Origin: a virus | Virus record (IMG/VR): IMGVR_UViG_3300046467_001114 | Coordinates: 1-35,581 of that record | Length of the DNA stretch: 35,581 nucleotides | Direction: 5' to 3' (one strand) | Shown here: positions 27,906 through 35,581 of the stretch, in pieces | Layout: each line of letters starts with the position of its first letter | Numbering within the stretch: position 1 is the first letter of the stretch | Made by a program: the position numbers and the translations under genes | The notes under the pieces: generated by a model | The model's database searches: none | Seen by the model: only the letters and a program-made list of their open reading frames with translations | What the model was told of the DNA's origin: nothing

Positions 27906-28862
27906 ATGAGAGGTAATGTCACAAAGAGATTGTTTACGGGCGTCGTTTCGACGGCGTTGCTTTTGTCTAGTCTGTCTGTAGCCCACGCCAAAGACGTGGC
28001 ACAGCATCTTCAGGACATAAGCGTGACCATCAAGGCTGGATTTACTGAGGGGTCTGGCGTTCTGATCACTAGACAGCTAGTTGCAAAGACGGGGGATAAA
28101 GAGAAAATTAACGTAAACTTCGTTGTTACGTGTGCTCACGTGGTGGATGGCCTTCGATCTACACGGCAGATCATTGAAGGTGGCAGGCCCAAGACTATTG
28201 TGGAGTTCAAGGATGCCCAAATTGTCAAAGAGCTGGTAGAGAATGGAAGAAAAGTAGGCGAATTGAAAATGGACGCTAGGGTTATTATGTATTCTGACGC
28301 TGAAGAAGGCGAAGATTTAGCCGTTCTCATAGTACGAAAACGCGGCTTTGTAACTGCCAACACAGAATTCTATTTAGAGAACCAAGCGGTGGACATTGGC
28401 ACCGACCTCTTTCACGTGGGCTCGTTACTTGGCCAATCTGGGGCAAATTCTATGACGGCAGGAATAATGTCTCAAGTTGGCAGAGTTTTGGATCTGGGTT
28501 CTGGTGGAGGCGTTGTGTTCGACCAAACCACGGTCACGGCATTCCCCGGCTCTTCTGGCGGGGGCGTGTTTCTCACTGATGGCAAATACGTGGGGATGTT
28601 AGTTCGCGGGGCTGGCGAAACATTTAATCTGATTGTACCCGTGCGGCGTATGCAATCATGGGCTAAGGCCCGTGGTGCAGAATGGGTGCTCAACCCTAAA
28701 TCGCCAAGGCCATCATTAGAGGACATTGAAAAAATAGAGATCGAAAAGGAAACTACTCAGTCCAAAGGCACCAAAGTTACCGATGCCAAGTCGTTTCCCT
28801 ATATGATACGGATCGTTAAATCTACGGACAAGAAATCTGACCCATTTGAGAAAAGGGAGTAG
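27906..28862 (+). CDS. Exported trypsin-like serine protease (DegP/S1 fold)
   Basis: The 318-aa protein has a Sec signal peptide (about residues 1-28, basic start, LLLSSLSVAHAKD) and a chymotrypsin-fold protease domain. The triad is in VVTCAHVVDG (H78), GEDLAVLIV (D137) and FPGSSGGGVFL (S217). No PDZ domain follows, so it is not a full DegP. A charged C-terminal tail follows. It should act outside the cytoplasmic membrane, where it could degrade or process envelope proteins. It sits 2 bases before the Tat-exported DUF1501 gene; the two form an exported pair. Confidence 0.92.
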   Translation: MRGNVTKRLFTGVVSTALLLSSLSVAHAKDVAQHLQDISVTIKAGFTEGSGVLITRQLVAKTGDKEKINVNFVVTCAHVVDGLRSTRQIIEGGRPKTIVEFKDAQIVKELVENGRKVGELKMDARVIMYSDAEEGEDLAVLIVRKRGFVTANTEFYLENQAVDIGTDLFHVGSLLGQSGANSMTAGIMSQVGRVLDLGSGGGVVFDQTTVTAFPGSSGGGVFLTDGKYVGMLVRGAGETFNLIVPVRRMQSWAKARGAEWVLNPKSPRPSLEDIEKIEIEKETTQSKGTKVTDAKSFPYMIRIVKSTDKKSDPFEKRE

Positions 28863-28864
28863 TC

Positions 28865-30112
28865 ATGTTGAAGGTAAATTTTAATAGACGAGATTTTGTT
28901 AAGGTCGGTGCAATTGGTGGGGGGTTAAGCTATATCCCATTTTCAGATACGGCATTTGCTCAAGAGAAAATAGTATCTAAGAAGAAGTCCGTTGTTTGGC
29001 TCTGGTTGGGGGGCGGGCCTACTCAGTTCGAGACCTTCCACGCCCCCACAGAGGCCGTACCAGACCCGTACAGGCCCGTTACTGGCATAGTGCGACATCC
29101 TAACGGGCTGGCCTTTGGTGGCTTATTTGAGCAATTGATTCAGCGTGGGGAGCATCTAACTGCGGTGAACTCCTTCTCTCATGGGGACTCTTCTCACCGC
29201 CAAGCTACCCACTGGATGATGACGGGACATCGTAATCCCAAGCGTGAGAATACTGCTGATTCTGAGTTCCCGGGCCACGGGGCAATTGCTTCAGCAGTGT
29301 TTGGTTCCAATGATCCCGCTAATGGCATGCCAGCATATGTCAAGCAGGGAAAAATTGAGGGTGAGCAGCCAACATTTTTAGGAGGTGCCCACAAACCCTT
29401 TGACCCTTCTAACAAGGACAATTTGACTCCTCGCATTAAGATTTCCCGCTTTGCAGATCGAAAAGAGCTGTTGAGGTCGTTCGATCAAGGGCGGGTTTTT
29501 TCCAGCGAGGCCGATTCATTCGTCCGTATTGGTGATCAGGCGTACAATGTCATTCTGGGGAACGCCAAGGATGCATTTGATCTTGACAAAGAGAAGCCCG
29601 AGACTAGGGACAAATACGGTAAGGGTGGTATTGGTGATCAAATGCTGCTGGCCAGACGGCTGGCTCAGTTTGGCACTAAGTTCATCACCGTTCATTATGG
29701 CGGTTGGGACATGCATGGGAATATTGCCAACGCCCTTAAGGGCAAGGTTCCGCCTCTTGATAAGGCTATTTCTGCTTTTGTAGACGATATTTATGAGAGT
29801 GGACTATCTGAGGATGTATTGTTGGTGGTTACTGGCGAATTTGGCAGGACTCGTTTGAATGGTAATGCCGGTCGAGATCATTGGCCTTCCATTACACCCA
29901 TGCTCTTGTCTGGCGGAAACTATAGTCATGGCGGGGTCATTGGAAAATCAGATAAGGCATATTATCCTACTGAGTCTAAAGTCACCCCCATTGATTTGGC
30001 GGCCACATTGTTCGATCACTTTGGAATTGATCCCGAGATCCAAAAAATTGATCCAGCCGGTAGGCCGCGATACCTTCTTGATGGCGAAGGGAAACCTATT
30101 TTAACAGCATAA
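28865..30112 (+). CDS. DUF1501 family protein, Tat-exported
   Basis: The 415-aa protein begins with a twin-arginine signal (NRRDFVKVGAIGGGLSYIPF, cleavage near AFAQ) and continues as an alkaline-phosphatase/sulfatase-like fold of the DUF1501 family, recognised by WLWLGGGPTQFETF, HGDSSHRQATHWMMTGHR, VHYGGWDMHGN, TGEFGRTRLNGNAGRDHWP and TLFDHFGID. Such genes are abundant in Planctomycetes and not known to me in phages. Conserved His and Asp residues suggest metal binding, but no activity is established. Tat export implies folding with cofactor before transport. Codon choice seems to differ from the neighbours, hinting at acquisition from a host. The homology is clear, function unknown. Confidence 0.9.
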   Translation: MLKVNFNRRDFVKVGAIGGGLSYIPFSDTAFAQEKIVSKKKSVVWLWLGGGPTQFETFHAPTEAVPDPYRPVTGIVRHPNGLAFGGLFEQLIQRGEHLTAVNSFSHGDSSHRQATHWMMTGHRNPKRENTADSEFPGHGAIASAVFGSNDPANGMPAYVKQGKIEGEQPTFLGGAHKPFDPSNKDNLTPRIKISRFADRKELLRSFDQGRVFSSEADSFVRIGDQAYNVILGNAKDAFDLDKEKPETRDKYGKGGIGDQMLLARRLAQFGTKFITVHYGGWDMHGNIANALKGKVPPLDKAISAFVDDIYESGLSEDVLLVVTGEFGRTRLNGNAGRDHWPSITPMLLSGGNYSHGGVIGKSDKAYYPTESKVTPIDLAATLFDHFGIDPEIQKIDPAGRPRYLLDGEGKPILTA

Positions 30113-30114
30113 AA

Positions 30115-30621
30115 ATGGAGGATAGCTCTAAAACATGGTACGGCGTAGGTTTTATAGCTGGGTGTTTTGATTTGATTCACCCCGGGTATATTGCCGCTTT
30201 CAAAGAGGCAAGGTCTGTGTGTGGTTACCTTAAGGTAGGGTTGCATAACGACCCCTCTATAGAGAGGCCGGAAAAGGCCAAGCCGGTGTTGTCACTACGG
30301 GATAGAAAGGAAATCTTACAATCTATCATATATGTGGATGAAGTTATAACCTACGACACAGAAGAGGATTTATTATCTATACTCAAGTCAGAAATTCAAG
30401 TATTTAATTTTCTGAGCTTAGCGAAGTGGAGCTTAGCGAAGCGGAAACCCCTAATTTTGAAAAAACCCATCATCAACGTGAGGTTTTTAGGAGACGATTA
30501 TAAGGATAGAACAGACTACACGGGGTATGGGCTTGATATAGACATCCATTTCCTGCCAAGGGGCCACGGGTGGTCAGCGACCGACCTTCGCAAAAAAATA
30601 TGCAATTCGCACAAAACCTGA
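30115..30621 (+). CDS. Cytidylyltransferase-like nucleotidyltransferase with an internal insertion
   Basis: The 168-aa protein matches glycerol-3-phosphate cytidylyltransferase and RfaE-type enzymes, which activate small molecules with CTP or ATP. GCFDLIHPGYIAAFKEA is the nucleotide-binding loop, LSLRDRKEIL and VDEVITYDTEEDL are typical helices, and HGWSATDLRKKI the C-terminal motif. The usual HxGH reads HPGY, so the second catalytic His is a Tyr. Compared with the family, about 25 residues (around FNFLSLAKWSLAKRKPLI) are inserted before INVRFLGDDYKD, in frame. No convincing ribosome site precedes ATG 30115; a GGAGG lies just inside it. Confidence 0.78.
   Translation: MEDSSKTWYGVGFIAGCFDLIHPGYIAAFKEARSVCGYLKVGLHNDPSIERPEKAKPVLSLRDRKEILQSIIYVDEVITYDTEEDLLSILKSEIQVFNFLSLAKWSLAKRKPLILKKPIINVRFLGDDYKDRTDYTGYGLDIDIHFLPRGHGWSATDLRKKICNSHKT
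30414..30443 (+). repeat. Imperfect 15-bp tandem duplication
   Basis: GAGCTTAGCGAAGTG at 30414-30428 is followed directly by GAGCTTAGCGAAGCG at 30429-30443, with one mismatch. It forms the left part of the in-frame insertion in the cytidylyltransferase gene and overlaps the beginning of dispersed repeat copy B. It gives the SLAKWSLAK stretch of the protein. Confidence 0.9.
30434..30468 (+). repeat. 35-bp dispersed repeat, copy B
   Basis: Matches copy A (20107-20141) with two mismatches, and 30443-30468 is identical over 26 bases. Here the DNA is read in another frame, giving KRKPLILKKP inside the nucleotidyltransferase. Together with the preceding tandem duplication it makes up most of the inserted segment. 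Confidence 0.9.
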
Positions 30622-30658
30622 AGTTACAATCCTATTAAATGTTTTTGGAGACGAGAAA

Positions 30659-30946
30659 ATGAATACTCCGTGGGACGATGGTATAATTACTGAAGACGAG
30701 TTTACAATGATGCTTAAAGTTTCAGAACTTAAACGAATGTTTATGGAACTCCCAGAAGAAGAACAACACGAGATCCTTAAGAGGTCCGGTCCAGAAAAAT
30801 CTGAAATAGCTAAAACATTGGATAAGCTAGCGAAATATCTAAAATCATCGTGGTTCAGAGGTATAGCGTTAAGAAAAGCCGCAGAGTTTGGACTCAACGA
30901 AGAAGAAGCAGATCATTTCGCAAAAGTTTGGAAACATGGTTCTTAG
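30659..30946 (+). CDS. Hypothetical helical protein
   Basis: This 95-aa protein is unrecognised, predicted to be wholly helical and strongly charged (for example LKRMFMELPEEEQHEILKRS and AAEFGLNEEEADHFAKVWK). There is no membrane segment or motif. GGAG precedes the ATG by about nine bases. It lies between the nucleotidyltransferase and a cysteine-containing protein, with a gap of 37 bases upstream that holds no clear promoter. Confidence 0.6.
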   Translation: MNTPWDDGIITEDEFTMMLKVSELKRMFMELPEEEQHEILKRSGPEKSEIAKTLDKLAKYLKSSWFRGIALRKAAEFGLNEEEADHFAKVWKHGS

Positions 30947-30964
30947 ATAGAAGGAGTCCACATC

Positions 30965-31348
30965 ATGCCCATTCCATCTAAAAAAAATAATGAAGACCCC
31001 AAAAGCTTCTTGTCTCGCTGCTTGGGCGACGACACTATGAAGAGTGAATATCCAGATCAAAAACAAAGAACGGCCATTTGTATGAGCAAGGCTTGTGAGT
31101 ATGCAGATTACATAGAGACAGCAGATCTTCAGCTAAATTATGACACGACGGGAGACGAAAAGGCGGGCTATCCTCCGAACTGCAACGATGGGTATGTAGA
31201 AAAAGATGGTAAATGTGTCCCCAAAGAGGAGAAGAAATCTGAGGCCCGATCTTATCAATACCAAGACCCTAAAACTGGGGAGATTTACACCTATAGACAG
31301 CCGGGTATTTATAGGAAAAATGGCAGAGTCTTAATCCCCGTGAAGTGA
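30965..31348 (+). CDS. Hypothetical protein with small phage-type N-terminal domain
   Basis: This 127-aa protein begins with a roughly 40-residue module (MPIPSKKNNEDPKSFLSRC, then EYPDQKQRTAICMSKA) of a kind seen at the N-terminus of some phage head and protease proteins. The middle has a cysteine pair in PPNCNDGYVEKDGKCVPK, and the C-terminal end is Tyr-rich and basic (YQDPKTGEIYTYRQPG). AGGAG precedes the ATG. It might be a virion component, but this is only a resemblance. Confidence 0.6.
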   Translation: MPIPSKKNNEDPKSFLSRCLGDDTMKSEYPDQKQRTAICMSKACEYADYIETADLQLNYDTTGDEKAGYPPNCNDGYVEKDGKCVPKEEKKSEARSYQYQDPKTGEIYTYRQPGIYRKNGRVLIPVK

Positions 31349-31362
31349 CCTAGGCGGGAAAT

Positions 31363-32361
31363 ATGGACACGCCAACACCGGACCCCGCACAGTGCCACTG
31401 TACGCACCCTAGGGTTTGTCCCCTCTTTAAAAAGATGATGGATAAGGCCAGCTTGCATTGGTGTCAAAACGCTAGTGAGGCAGATAGGCAAGAGTACCAG
31501 AAAGCCCACAAGAGTCCAATAGCATTAACCCAAGAAGCACACCAATTTATTTGTAAGTATAGCGGCGACCATAAGGCAGATACTCCTAATGTGCAAATCG
31601 CTGTGTTGGGCCACAGTAAAAAGCAATTTGATACGATCAAAGATCGCCCATATCTTAAAAAGATCTATTTAGACGATCTTAACTTGGGCAAGTACCACAA
31701 AAGGTTTCAGTCAAACGCTTACGCTGAAAGCAGAGCCTTTTTGTGTGACGAGCTTTTTGATGTCGGTGCGGAATACGTTGGCACCGTCACTGCCTCTTGG
31801 AACATCAAGTATAAAGGGTTCAGCCCTATTGATGACTTCCATAATTGGCAGGCCAGCAAAGCTCTACTGCAATCACAAAGAGACGACGTAGTGCTGTGTG
31901 CAGATTTGGCTTTGCCCATTATATGGTTTGGAGATGATTCACACTTTTTTGTTTTAGATTATCTTGGCTTCTCTAGGCGACAAAGAACAAAAATTAACAG
32001 GGTGCTGTTCGGTGACTTAAAACTACGAATTAAAGAAGATGGCCCTCCCTCCCCATTGTCAAACCAACTTATATGCCACAAAAATTTGTACAACAGATAC
32101 ACTACGTTCCTCAGAGATAACGAGGTATTGGAAAGATTGGAGCGACTGTTTAGGAAGGGTGATATGGTTACCAAAAACTCATTGACAAACCAAAGACCCA
32201 TAGCATTTATTGTCGAGAGCATAACCATGCTTTGGTTTGGTATGCAAGAAAACATATTGTACATTCCAAATGAGATTAGACCCCCAGAATGGTACAAACC
32301 AACCAACGTAGGAGACAGGTTTACTTGGCACCAAAAGGGTAAACATGACAACAAAATATGA
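31363..32361 (+). CDS. Unassigned protein, possible glycosyltransferase partner of Glf
   Basis: The 332-aa protein is not confidently assigned. Its N-terminus carries a Cys-rich cluster (CHCTHPRVCPLF and HWC, within residues 11-35) that could hold metal. A segment AYAESRAFLCDELFDVG followed by YVGTVTASWNIKYK and a later aromatic-rich region resemble the fold pattern of some polysaccharide glycosyltransferases. The gene overlaps the UDP-galactopyranose mutase gene by 17 bases, so a galactofuranose transfer role is attractive. No signal peptide or membrane helix is seen. It may equally be an unrelated phage protein. Confidence 0.5.
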   Translation: MDTPTPDPAQCHCTHPRVCPLFKKMMDKASLHWCQNASEADRQEYQKAHKSPIALTQEAHQFICKYSGDHKADTPNVQIAVLGHSKKQFDTIKDRPYLKKIYLDDLNLGKYHKRFQSNAYAESRAFLCDELFDVGAEYVGTVTASWNIKYKGFSPIDDFHNWQASKALLQSQRDDVVLCADLALPIIWFGDDSHFFVLDYLGFSRRQRTKINRVLFGDLKLRIKEDGPPSPLSNQLICHKNLYNRYTTFLRDNEVLERLERLFRKGDMVTKNSLTNQRPIAFIVESITMLWFGMQENILYIPNEIRPPEWYKPTNVGDRFTWHQKGKHDNKI

Positions 32362-33448
32362 TTACCTAATAGTTGGGTGTGGATTATTTGGATCAGTCTT
32401 TGCTAGGCAGGCTACTGAAGCTGGCAAGAGCTGCCTCATAATAGATAAACGTAAACACGTGGGAGGTAATTGCTATACTGAGGAAAAAAATGGCATACAC
32501 GTTCACAAGTATGGTCCGCATATCTTCCACACAAACAACGAGCAGGTGTGGAACTTTATAAATCGATGGGCATCATTTAATAACTATGTACATCGGCCCA
32601 AGGTGAGTCACAAGGGCAACCTCTATTCCTTCCCCATAAACCTTTTCACGCTCCATCAGCTTTGGGGGGTAAACACACCTGAAGAAGCTGAGCGTAAGCT
32701 GGAAGAAGTTCGGGTGCCAATTGCTAACCCTGAAAATTTAGAAGAATGGATTCTCTCACGGGTCGGCACTGAGATATACGAAACATTCATTTACGGCTAC
32801 ACAAAGAAACAGTGGAACAAAGAACCAAGGGAATTGCCGTCGTCAATTATCAAAAGGCTACCAATCAGGCTTACGCATGACGATAATTATTTTAATGACA
32901 AGTATCAGGGGATACCAATAGGTGGGTATACTGCAATTTTCAACAAAATGCTAGAGGGCATACGGGTCGAGCTAGGTATAGACTATTTAACTGCTCGTGA
33001 CTACTGGGATAGTAAAGCAAAAAGAACCGTGTACACTGGGGCAATAGATGAATTCTTCGGGAATACACATGGGACACTAGAGTGGCGTAGCCTGATGTTC
33101 AAAGACGAATTCATCGAAAGCTGCGACTACCAAGGTAACGCTGTCATAAATTACACAGCAGAAAATGTACCATTTACCAGAATAGTTGAACATAAGCATT
33201 TTGATTACACCAACCAGTCAGACACAATAATTACCAAGGAGTATCCAGAAAACTGGACATCGGGCCAAGAGAAATTTTACCCAATTAACGACGAGAAAAA
33301 CAATCAGTTGTATTTAAAGTACAAAAAATTGATAGACAAATCCAAACATATCCTTGGTGGCAGGCTGGCAGATTATAAATATTACGACATGCATCAGGTA
33401 ATAGCCTCCTCGCTTCACCAATTTTCTAAAATTCACTTGACAAATTGA
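32345..33448 (+). CDS. glf: UDP-galactopyranose mutase
   Basis: The 367-aa flavoenzyme converts UDP-galactopyranose to UDP-galactofuranose, the donor for galactofuranose-containing glycans. The FAD-binding Rossmann motif is YDYLIVGCGLFGSVFARQA, followed by IIDKRKHVGGNCYTE, KYGPHIFHTNNEQVWNFI and FIYGYTKKQWNKEP, all signatures of this family. Length matches the bacterial enzyme. It overlaps the preceding gene, and an AAGGG site lies upstream of the ATG. The stop overlaps promoter P2. A phage would use it to build or disguise a surface glycan, or with a galactofuranosyltransferase to decorate its own particles. Confidence 0.95.
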   Translation: MTTKYDYLIVGCGLFGSVFARQATEAGKSCLIIDKRKHVGGNCYTEEKNGIHVHKYGPHIFHTNNEQVWNFINRWASFNNYVHRPKVSHKGNLYSFPINLFTLHQLWGVNTPEEAERKLEEVRVPIANPENLEEWILSRVGTEIYETFIYGYTKKQWNKEPRELPSSIIKRLPIRLTHDDNYFNDKYQGIPIGGYTAIFNKMLEGIRVELGIDYLTARDYWDSKAKRTVYTGAIDEFFGNTHGTLEWRSLMFKDEFIESCDYQGNAVINYTAENVPFTRIVEHKHFDYTNQSDTIITKEYPENWTSGQEKFYPINDEKNNQLYLKYKKLIDKSKHILGGRLADYKYYDMHQVIASSLHQFSKIHLTN

Positions 33449-33496: not shown

Positions 33497-35125
33497 ATGA
33501 ATTGGTTTCCACTCTGTAATTACACGCACTATTCCCTACTTAAGGGATTCTCTAAGCCCGCTCAGCTTGCACAAAAGTGTGTAGACAACATGTACAGAGC
33601 GTGTGGCATAGCTGATTACAAGTCGCTGTCCGGTGCCGTGACCTTTTACCAGTCGTGCATCAAGCGTGATATTAAGCCTATCATTGGATGTTCCTTTGGT
33701 GGATTTTCTTTATTCGCTAAAAATAAGGATGGGTGGCTAGATCTCATTCAGATTGTGTCGTCTATGGACGAAAACAATACTATTAACGATACATTGTTAA
33801 TGCATGTAGCCGACAGGAAAAATTTAATTAGCATTGCTCAACATGAGTCCGACTCTCCCATCCATGGTGAAGATTTCTATCGCAAGTCGGAATCGTTCAT
33901 GGACATTTACTATGCCGACAGGGAAGATGCCCCGCTGCATCGCATTTTGTTGTGCTCTAGCATGAAGACCACTTTGCCCAAAATAAGCAAGCAAATAACC
34001 ACAGGGGAAGAAGTTGATAACCAGATTTTTTTTGAGTCTAATGACTTCTTCTTAAAAAACAAAACAGAAATATCGGAAGTCATCGTAGCAGATCCTCAGA
34101 TCAATAAATTTGATGACATATACGACAAGTGTGAAAACTACAACATCCTCAACAAGCCCATGCTACCCAAGTTCGCTACCCCCAAAGGCGTGAGTGAAAA
34201 TGAGCACCTCACAGAACTATGCAGGGAGGGATGGAGAACCAAGCTTAAGCCGAGCGGCAAAATAGACGGTGAGGCAGAGAGAGACAGGTATGCCGAAAGA
34301 ACCAAGAGAGAATTAGAAGTTATCTTCCAAGCCGATCTGTCTGGATATTTTTTGATTGTTCAGGACATCGTAGACTACGTGAACAGAGAGGGCTGGCTGT
34401 CTGGGCCGGGCCGAGGGTCTGCCGCAGGGAGCATTATTTCGTATTTGATTGGTGTCACCAAAATTGATCCTATTGAATTTGATTTACTCTTCGAGAGATT
34501 CTACAACAGCGGTAGGAATACAGAAGATTATATTTCATTGCCAGACATTGACATTGACGTGCCTGGAAACAAGCGAGACGAGATCATATATTACCTCAAA
34601 GAGGCTTACGGTCACGACAACGTAAGCCAGATGTTAACATTCGGAAGGCTTCAGGGCAGGAGTGCCATAAAGGAAGTGTTGCGTGTCAACAACGCCTGCG
34701 GGTTTAGCGAAATGAATGAAATCACTAAGGCCATTCCCAACGAGGCAGACATTTCCGATCAGCTACAAGAAATGGATGAAGAAGACAGATCCATTATCAG
34801 GTGGGCTCTGCTTAACAACTCAGATGAGCTGAGAGACTATTGTTTTATAAACGACAGGGGCCAGCTTGATGGTGATTATGCAGATTTCTTCGATCAAGCT
34901 ATCAAAATAGAGGGAACATTTAAAACCCAGGGCAAGCATGCCGCTGGTGTGGTAATATCTATTGACGAACTCAACAAGGTTTGCCCCATGGTGAATCAAA
35001 GAAGTGGGGGAGAAAAGATCGCGGGGTTAGAAATGGCCGACCTAGAAGCACTGGGTCACGTCAAATTTGATGTCTTGGGGATTAATCTCTTGGACAAAAT
35101 TATGAAAATAAAGGAGATCATATGA
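33497..35125 (+). CDS. dnaE: DNA polymerase III alpha, N-terminal part (PHP-like and palm domains)
   Basis: This 542-aa protein is the front half of a C-family replicative polymerase. Residues 1-220 form a PHP-like domain whose metal-binding histidines are mostly lost (NYTHYSLLKG replaces the usual HSxYS motif). The palm contains GPGRGSAAGS, PDIDIDVPGNKRDEI (D350, D352, D354) and HVKFDVLGINLLD (D525), so all catalytic Asp regions are present. The frame stops 17 residues after D525; a full alpha subunit continues for 500 or more residues (fingers, clamp binding). The missing half is presumably a separate gene beyond the next. The stop is coupled by ATGA to an exonuclease. Promoter P2 precedes it. 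Confidence 0.93.
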   Translation: MNWFPLCNYTHYSLLKGFSKPAQLAQKCVDNMYRACGIADYKSLSGAVTFYQSCIKRDIKPIIGCSFGGFSLFAKNKDGWLDLIQIVSSMDENNTINDTLLMHVADRKNLISIAQHESDSPIHGEDFYRKSESFMDIYYADREDAPLHRILLCSSMKTTLPKISKQITTGEEVDNQIFFESNDFFLKNKTEISEVIVADPQINKFDDIYDKCENYNILNKPMLPKFATPKGVSENEHLTELCREGWRTKLKPSGKIDGEAERDRYAERTKRELEVIFQADLSGYFLIVQDIVDYVNREGWLSGPGRGSAAGSIISYLIGVTKIDPIEFDLLFERFYNSGRNTEDYISLPDIDIDVPGNKRDEIIYYLKEAYGHDNVSQMLTFGRLQGRSAIKEVLRVNNACGFSEMNEITKAIPNEADISDQLQEMDEEDRSIIRWALLNNSDELRDYCFINDRGQLDGDYADFFDQAIKIEGTFKTQGKHAAGVVISIDELNKVCPMVNQRSGGEKIAGLEMADLEALGHVKFDVLGINLLDKIMKIKEII

Positions 35126-35581
35126 ACAGAGACATTATTATGTTTGACTTTGAAACCGGCGGTCGCAATCCGTTAAAATGTCAACCTACGCAGATTGCCG
35201 CCATTGCTTTGGATGGGAGGAACTTCAGATTAAAGGGTGAATTCAATAGCGAGATGAGACCCATTCTTGATGACAAGAAGGCAATTGAAGCCGGTCTTGA
35301 CCCAGTCGAAGATGAAGCACTGAGGATTACCCACAAGACTAGAGCGGCACTGGCTAGGGCACCTTTACCAAGGGGTGTCTGGAAAAAGTTTATCACCTTT
35401 GTTAATAAGTACAACTGGAAAAGCACACCCTATTTTGCACCCATTCCGGCTGGGTTTAATATCATTGGGTACGATATGAAAATTGTAGACAGGCTGTGCA
35501 AAGAATATGGGCCTTGGGATGAGAAAAGGGAGTGCCAAAAACTATTCCACCAAATTTATAAGATCGACGTAATGGACGATG
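35122..35581 (+). CDS. DEDD-type 3'-5' exonuclease, incomplete at window end
   Basis: The first 153 residues are visible, and no stop is reached. Motif I is IMFDFETGGRNPLKC (Asp and Glu metal ligands), motif II lies in GFNIIGYDMKIVDRL, and the spacing fits the DnaQ-like DEDD family. It should proofread for the polymerase, and its start overlaps the polymerase stop. AAGGAG is placed inside the end of the polymerase gene. The third motif lies outside the window. This gene replaces the proofreading function that the degenerate PHP domain appears to lack. Confidence 0.85.
   Translation, partial: MNRDIIMFDFETGGRNPLKCQPTQIAAIALDGRNFRLKGEFNSEMRPILDDKKAIEAGLDPVEDEALRITHKTRAALARAPLPRGVWKKFITFVNKYNWKSTPYFAPIPAGFNIIGYDMKIVDRLCKEYGPWDEKRECQKLFHQIYKIDVMDD

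What the first reader, a model, noticed from the sequence alone, without database searches (positions are those of the whole stretch)
33497..35581. Replicative polymerase split after the palm, with an exonuclease gene placed at the break
The alpha-subunit frame contains every catalytic aspartate region (350-354 and 525) but ends 17 residues after the last one, where the fingers should begin. The next gene is a DEDD exonuclease joined by an ATGA overlap, not the rest of alpha. A polymerase built from separate palm and fingers/clamp-binding proteins, with proofreading encoded between them, would be an unusual architecture. I infer that the second half lies downstream.
Basis: partly seen in the sequence, partly recalled or inferred. 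Interest (0 to 1): 0.75.

Follow-up and report, generated by a model that had tools for sequence, protein, structure and literature searches.

The report
Phage replicative DNA polymerase in two pieces
A large group of uncultured, mostly aquatic phages encodes its only replicative DNA polymerase as two separate proteins, cut between the catalytic palm and the fingers, with the proofreading exonuclease gene almost always lying between the two halves.

Summary
The window is an IMG/VR fragment ending inside the exonuclease gene. In an 85%-identical relative (L002) and in 147 non-redundant viral loci the order is PolN (PHP + palm), DEDDh exonuclease, PolC (fingers + HhH + OB). No locus of this clade has a fused polymerase. 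One deep-branching locus (L161) is split at the same place with other genes in the gap. The halves tile the DnaE profile (206-573 and 587-1050 of 1146). The catalytic aspartates are invariant and dN/dS is about 0.04, 0.02 and 0.04. Eleven 130-230 kb viral records carry this polymerase and no PolA or PolB, so it is very probably their replicase.

In 44 loci both junctions are tight or overlapping, leaving no room for an intron or intein, and Rfam finds none. The halves must therefore assemble non-covalently (inferred). The locus is rich in homing-type nucleases and true (split) inteins at other sites, which points to fission driven by mobile nucleases. Split C-family polymerases are known in other phages, with different breaks and gene order, so this is a new variant. 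That the exonuclease helps hold the halves together is possible but unproven.

The parts
33497..35125 (+). PolN: N-terminal half of a DnaE-type DNA polymerase III alpha subunit (decayed PHP, palm, thumb), 542 aa
   Evidence: Pfam PHP and DNA_pol3_alpha; PDB sequence and fold matches to DnaE; AlphaFold pLDDT 90.8
33497..34171 (+). PHP-like region, shortened by about 95 residues and with most metal ligands lost
   Evidence: Column comparison with deep relatives
34544..34558 (+). Catalytic motif DIDID (D350-D354); D350 and D352 align with E. coli 401 and 403
   Evidence: Alignment to E. coli alpha; invariant in 37 representatives
35069..35071 (+). Third catalytic aspartate D525, aligned with E. 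coli 555
35122..35125 (+). ATGA stop/start overlap between PolN and the exonuclease gene (translational coupling inferred)
   Evidence: Sequence
35122..35581 (+). 5' part of a DEDD-family exonuclease gene (153 aa; D9, E11, D118 by motif), cut off by the window end; complete homologue of 224 aa in L002 with the H....D motif
   Evidence: phrog_192 'DNA polymerase exonuclease subunit'; full-length RNase_T match in L002

Best explanation
This is a trans-encoded, two-piece C-family replicative polymerase. PolN supplies the (here decayed) PHP, the palm and the thumb with all metal-binding aspartates. PolC supplies fingers, HhH and OB domains. A DEDDh exonuclease is encoded in the same tight gene cluster. 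Mechanism: the proteins are made together by translational coupling, the two halves dock through the natural palm-fingers interface to rebuild one active site without covalent repair, and the exonuclease proofreads, probably bound to the core as epsilon is. Shown: the anatomy, its conservation, purifying selection on both halves, lack of a family A or B polymerase in large records, absence of intein or intron at the break. Inferred: non-covalent assembly, catalytic activity, exonuclease binding, and origin by fission of a one-piece DnaE through insertion of a mobile nuclease gene.
For: Census: 147 non-redundant loci with PolN/exo/PolC, 1 with PolN/PolC and no exo between, 0 fused, 24 cut off before PolC. 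The halves tile the DnaE profile with a 14-position gap; the break lies between E. coli residues ~571 and 589. PolN-exo overlap in 56 loci, exo-PolC overlap in 82, both junctions within 150 nt in 44. dN/dS medians 0.043, 0.020, 0.037. Distances of the three genes correlate at 0.89-0.91. Fingers domain in all 12 records, PolA and PolB in none of 11 viral records. Each half alone is predicted to fold well and matches DnaE structures. No Rfam intron. Mobile nucleases at both junctions.
Against: No biochemistry, and a prediction of the two-chain complex could not be run. All records are uncultured and the host is unknown. No bacterial sliding clamp was found, so the processivity partner is unknown, and the tau-binding end of alpha is not detected. 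No unsplit close sister was found, so the fission step is not directly observed.
Confidence: 0.86

Rival explanations
1. Assembly with an obligatory bridge: the two halves cannot form a stable polymerase alone, and the exonuclease encoded between them physically holds or times their assembly, so the core is an obligate heterotrimer.
For: The exonuclease lies at the break in 147 of 148 split loci, is the most constrained of the three genes (median dN/dS 0.020), and its distances follow those of PolN and PolC. The PHP proofreading site is lost in the window clade.
Against: L161 is split with no exonuclease in the gap. Gene order alone does not show binding. Other genes, including nucleases, also occupy the gaps.
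Confidence: 0.3
2. The halves are rejoined into one chain, by RNA splicing, protein trans-splicing or programmed frameshifting across the exonuclease.
For: True split inteins and inteins occur at other sites of this same polymerase, and cyanobacterial DnaE is a known trans-spliced case (from memory).
Against: Overlapping genes leave no room for an intron or intein halves in 44 loci; no Rfam intron; no intein motifs at the PolN end or PolC start; a frameshift would put the whole exonuclease into the chain.
Confidence: 0.04
3. PolN and PolC are decaying remnants, and the phage uses the host polymerase.
For: No other polymerase family is needed if the host enzyme is used; no clamp found.
Against: Invariant catalytic residues, dN/dS about 0.04 on both halves, and persistence down to ~35% identity.
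Confidence: 0.03
4. Sequencing or assembly artefact in a continuous dnaE.
For: The window is a metagenome contig that ends soon after the break.
Against: The same break in 148 non-redundant loci from many samples, with a whole gene in between.
Confidence: 0.005

Closest known systems
Bacterial DNA polymerase III alpha, DnaE type (PF07733/PF17657, NCBIfam PRK05673)
   Same: Same domains in the same order, same catalytic aspartates and fingers motifs
   Different: Two polypeptides here; break between E. coli residues ~571 and 589; no detected tau-binding C-terminus; shortened, decayed PHP in the window clade
Split minimal Pol III alpha of group 2.2 jumbo phages (Iyer et al. 2021, PMC7824862)
   Same: C-family catalytic subunit in two proteins proposed to reassemble
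   Different: There the parts are an N-terminal NTP-binding and a C-terminal Mg/template-binding protein, encoded by distant genes, without the other Pol III domains and next to a family B polymerase. Here most of alpha is present, in one gene cluster, cut after the last aspartate, with no PolB.
Split DnaE of Cellulophaga phage phi13:1/phiST and Bacillus phage Jayan
   Same: Two-gene C-family polymerase in cultured phages
   Different: Break at profile 342-351, before the catalytic DxD, no exonuclease between
Fractured genes with split inteins and a homing nuclease (Dassa et al. 2009, known here only through citations in PMC6892783 and PMC10448857)
   Same: Gene pieces separated by another gene; such elements occur in this same polymerase in L019, L062, L144
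   Different: No intein halves at the PolN|PolC break; the gene at the break is a replication exonuclease
Phage genes split by a homing nuclease that work as two peptides (ribonucleotide reductase case cited in PMC10448857; T4-type gp43A/gp43B, from memory)
   Same: Essential enzyme working as separate chains after a mobile nuclease insertion
   Different: Different enzyme families; here the split is fixed across a whole deep clade and the gap holds a functionally related exonuclease

Membership tests
C-family polymerase III alpha (DnaE) | Pol III alpha palm with three catalytic aspartates | tested here: met
   Pfam DNA_pol3_alpha 1-260 of 260; D350/D352/D525 align with 401/403/555; invariant in 37 representatives
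C-family polymerase III alpha (DnaE) | N-terminal PHP domain | tested here: met
   Pfam PHP, 50.8 bits; degenerate metal site in the window clade, complete in deep relatives
C-family polymerase III alpha (DnaE) | Fingers, HhH and OB domains | tested here: met
   In PolC of relatives: DNA_pol3_finger E = 6e-48, HHH_6 and OB below cut-off; fold match over the whole chain. The window itself ends before PolC.
C-family polymerase III alpha (DnaE) | One continuous polypeptide | tested here: not met
   148 split, 0 fused
C-family polymerase III alpha (DnaE) | C-terminal tau-binding domain and clamp-binding motif | tested here: inconclusive
   Profile match ends at 1050 of 1146; clamp motif not searched; no bacterial clamp found in 12 records
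DEDDh (epsilon/DnaQ-like) exonuclease | RNase_T fold with DEDDh motifs | tested here: met
   Complete homologue in L002: RNase_T 1-164 of 164, 38.1 bits; phrog_192 'DNA polymerase exonuclease subunit'. The window copy is cut off before H....D.
DEDDh (epsilon/DnaQ-like) exonuclease | Physical binding to alpha | not testable with these tools
   No complex prediction or assay available
Split-intein fractured gene | Intein halves at the break | tested here: not met
   PolN tail and PolC start carry none; genes overlap; true split inteins at other sites look clearly different
Group I/II intron | Intron RNA structure between the halves | tested here: not met
   Rfam: no match in six sources, nor an intron at relaxed threshold at the L002 break
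Group 2.2 jumbo-phage split Pol III | Break between NTP-binding and Mg-binding parts, distant genes, family B polymerase present | tested here: not met
   Break after the last aspartate, one gene cluster, no PolB in 11 viral records

The most novel reading that the evidence does not exclude
A clade-wide replisome core that is an obligate heterotrimer: the replicative polymerase exists only as separate palm and fingers subunits, and a dedicated proofreading exonuclease, encoded at the break, bridges or times their assembly. It would have evolved when a mobile nuclease split the gene and the exonuclease later took over the slot.
Probability: 0.3. Interest if true: 0.8.

Novelty: new variant of a known kind. 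Interest (0 to 1): 0.62.

Why it matters
A replicative polymerase working from separate palm and fingers chains would show that the two parts of the active site need no covalent link, even in an enzyme that must copy a 130-230 kb genome accurately. It offers a natural split-polymerase system. Because deep members keep an intact PHP site while the window clade has lost it, it also gives a direct way to test how proofreading passes from PHP to a DnaQ-type exonuclease. It further documents mobile nucleases reshaping an essential replication gene over deep time in widespread uncultured phages.

Tried and rejected
Sequencing error: rejected by 148 loci. Intron: no Rfam hit and no space. Split intein at this break: none, although true split inteins exist elsewhere in the gene. 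Exonuclease as the cause of the split: weakened by L161, but that is one genome. Host assignment through GTDB genomes: only two contigs binned as Lokiarchaeota (L160, L161) and ordinary bacterial DnaE came back, so the host stays unknown. T4-type clamp search: nothing rang in the controls either, so it says nothing. Cultured relatives: best phage records only about 30% identical. Literature: no description of this break found among the held papers; the library is open-access only.

Full report
Observation. The window is a 35,581-base IMG/VR virus record. Its last two genes are a 542-aa ORF at 33497-35125 and an exonuclease ORF starting at 35122, sharing ATGA. The first contains Pfam PHP and the complete DNA_pol3_alpha domain. 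Against E. coli alpha, D350, D352 and D525 align with residues 401, 403 and 555, and the protein stops 17 residues after D525, where E. coli alpha continues into the fingers.

The missing half. A scan of IMG/VR with PolN gave 63 loci, most covering residues 1-541/542. L002 (85% identical) continues past the window's end: exonuclease of 224 aa, a 160-aa gene, then a 519-aa protein with Pfam DNA_pol3_finger (E = 6e-48) and an OB-like end, then an SSB-like gene. In L030 the exonuclease is followed directly by the fingers protein. On the NCBIfam DnaE model PRK05673 the two proteins cover positions 206-573 and 587-1050 of 1146, so only a connector of about 14 positions is missing between them. In E. 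coli numbering the break lies between about 571 and 589.

Conservation. After four further scans of IMG/VR, reaching about 35% identity, and one of GTDB genomes, a census of loci made non-redundant on identical PolN ends gave 147 with PolN, exonuclease and PolC in that order, 1 with PolN and PolC but no exonuclease between, 0 fused, and 24 cut off before PolC. Many of the 147 are close relatives; those with complete halves reduce to 37 representatives at 72% PolN identity. Catalytic aspartates and key fingers residues are invariant. Median dN/dS for close pairs is 0.043 (PolN), 0.020 (exonuclease) and 0.037 (PolC). Pairwise distances of the three genes correlate at 0.89-0.91. Both halves are therefore real, constrained proteins that travel together.

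Replicase. Eleven virus records of 130-230 kb and the assembly holding L161 were searched. The fingers domain was found in all 12, once per genome except L144, where an intein breaks the match in two. PolA was found in none. PolB was found only in the 4.1-Mb assembly of L161, on contigs other than the L161 contig. No bacterial clamp was found. The T4-clamp search had no positive control and says nothing. Records may be incomplete, so absence is good but not absolute evidence.

How the pieces work together. In 44 loci both junctions are within 150 nt; PolN and exonuclease overlap in 56 loci, exonuclease and PolC in 82. There is no room for an intron. Rfam finds none in six sources or, at relaxed threshold, at the L002 break. 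No intein motifs flank the break. True inteins elsewhere in the same polymerase serve as positive controls: contiguous ones at RPG|C in L008 and L144, and split ones with a free-standing nuclease at FNK|S in L019, L062 and L144 and at GPGRG|S in L062. AlphaFold predicts each half alone with high confidence (pLDDT 90.8 and 92.7), and the best PDB matches are DnaE chains. The most likely mechanism is non-covalent assembly through the normal palm-fingers contact. This is inference: a complex could not be modelled here.

Origin. The gaps on both sides of the exonuclease are variable. Endonuclease VII-like genes occur only between exonuclease and PolC (15 loci). HNH-like genes and a conserved ORF of about 76 aa (34 loci) occur between PolN and exonuclease. 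A 160-aa gene occurs in both gaps and also elsewhere. The HNH call rests on sequence motifs seen by eye, as Pfam gave no HNH hit for those genes. In the tree, L161 branches first (exonuclease-bearing clade support 0.998). It is split at the same place, its gap holds a DUF4326 gene and another ORF, and the only RNase_T match in its assembly lies about 10 kb upstream on the same contig with a different architecture. It shares downstream glycosyltransferase genes with L002 at 33-44% identity, so it is the same virus lineage. The simplest history is that the break came first, by insertion of a mobile gene, and the exonuclease entered the gap later. This rests on one genome. Exchange at the PolN/exonuclease junction is also seen: L024 and L025 share 97% of PolN but only 86-87% of exonuclease and PolC.

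Proofreading. Most deep members keep all nine PHP metal ligands. The window clade has lost most of them and about 95 residues of the domain. The exonuclease is then the only evident proofreader. This fits, but does not prove, a tight exonuclease-polymerase core.

Comparison. Split C-family polymerases are known. Iyer et al. (PMC7824862) describe one in group 2.2 jumbo phages, divided into an NTP-binding and a Mg-binding part, encoded by distant genes, with a family B polymerase alongside. Cellulophaga phi13:1/phiST and Bacillus Jayan are cut before the aspartates, with no exonuclease between. None of the PHROG families matched starts at the fingers or ends at the palm end. The present arrangement differs in break point, gene order, completeness of alpha and role. 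I file it as a new variant of a known kind (split phage polymerase), not as a new enzyme family.

Limits. All evidence is sequence-based, the host is unknown, the window lacks PolC itself, and the literature search covered open-access papers only.

Noticed in passing
L144 10473-14109: PolC carries a contiguous HNH intein at RPG|C and a split intein at FNK|S with a free-standing Vsr-like nuclease between, so this alpha is spread over three genes.
   Followed up: partly
L062 748-3638: Split intein at GPGRG|S in PolN with a PD-(D/E)XK-like nuclease gene between the halves.
   Followed up: partly
L055 5350-5640: PolN is broken again by a ~290-nt insert just before SLPDIDID, the same place where Cellulophaga phiST and Bacillus Jayan DnaE are split; no intron family found.
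   Followed up: partly
L002 12297-12779; L004 11652-12152; L009 3921-4391: A 160-aa gene without a Pfam match sits in either gap of the polymerase cluster or elsewhere, behaving like a mobile gene; possibly a PD-(D/E)XK-type nuclease.
   Followed up: partly
L148 9896-10138 and other loci: Conserved ~76-80-aa ORF without a Pfam match right after PolN in 34 loci.
   Followed up: no
window 33497-34171: PHP decay: nine metal ligands complete in most deep relatives, mostly lost in the window clade together with ~95 residues.
   Followed up: yes
L160, L161: Two relatives lie in contigs binned as Lokiarchaeota; L160 PolN is 93% identical to an IMG/VR virus contig, so these are either misbinned viruses or archaeal viruses.
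   Followed up: partly
L024 and L025: PolN 97% identical but exonuclease and PolC 86-87%: genetic exchange at the PolN/exonuclease junction.
   Followed up: partly
window 27906-33448: Cargo next to the polymerase: trypsin-like protein, DUF1501 protein, cytidylyltransferase-like protein, UDP-galactopyranose mutase.
   Followed up: no
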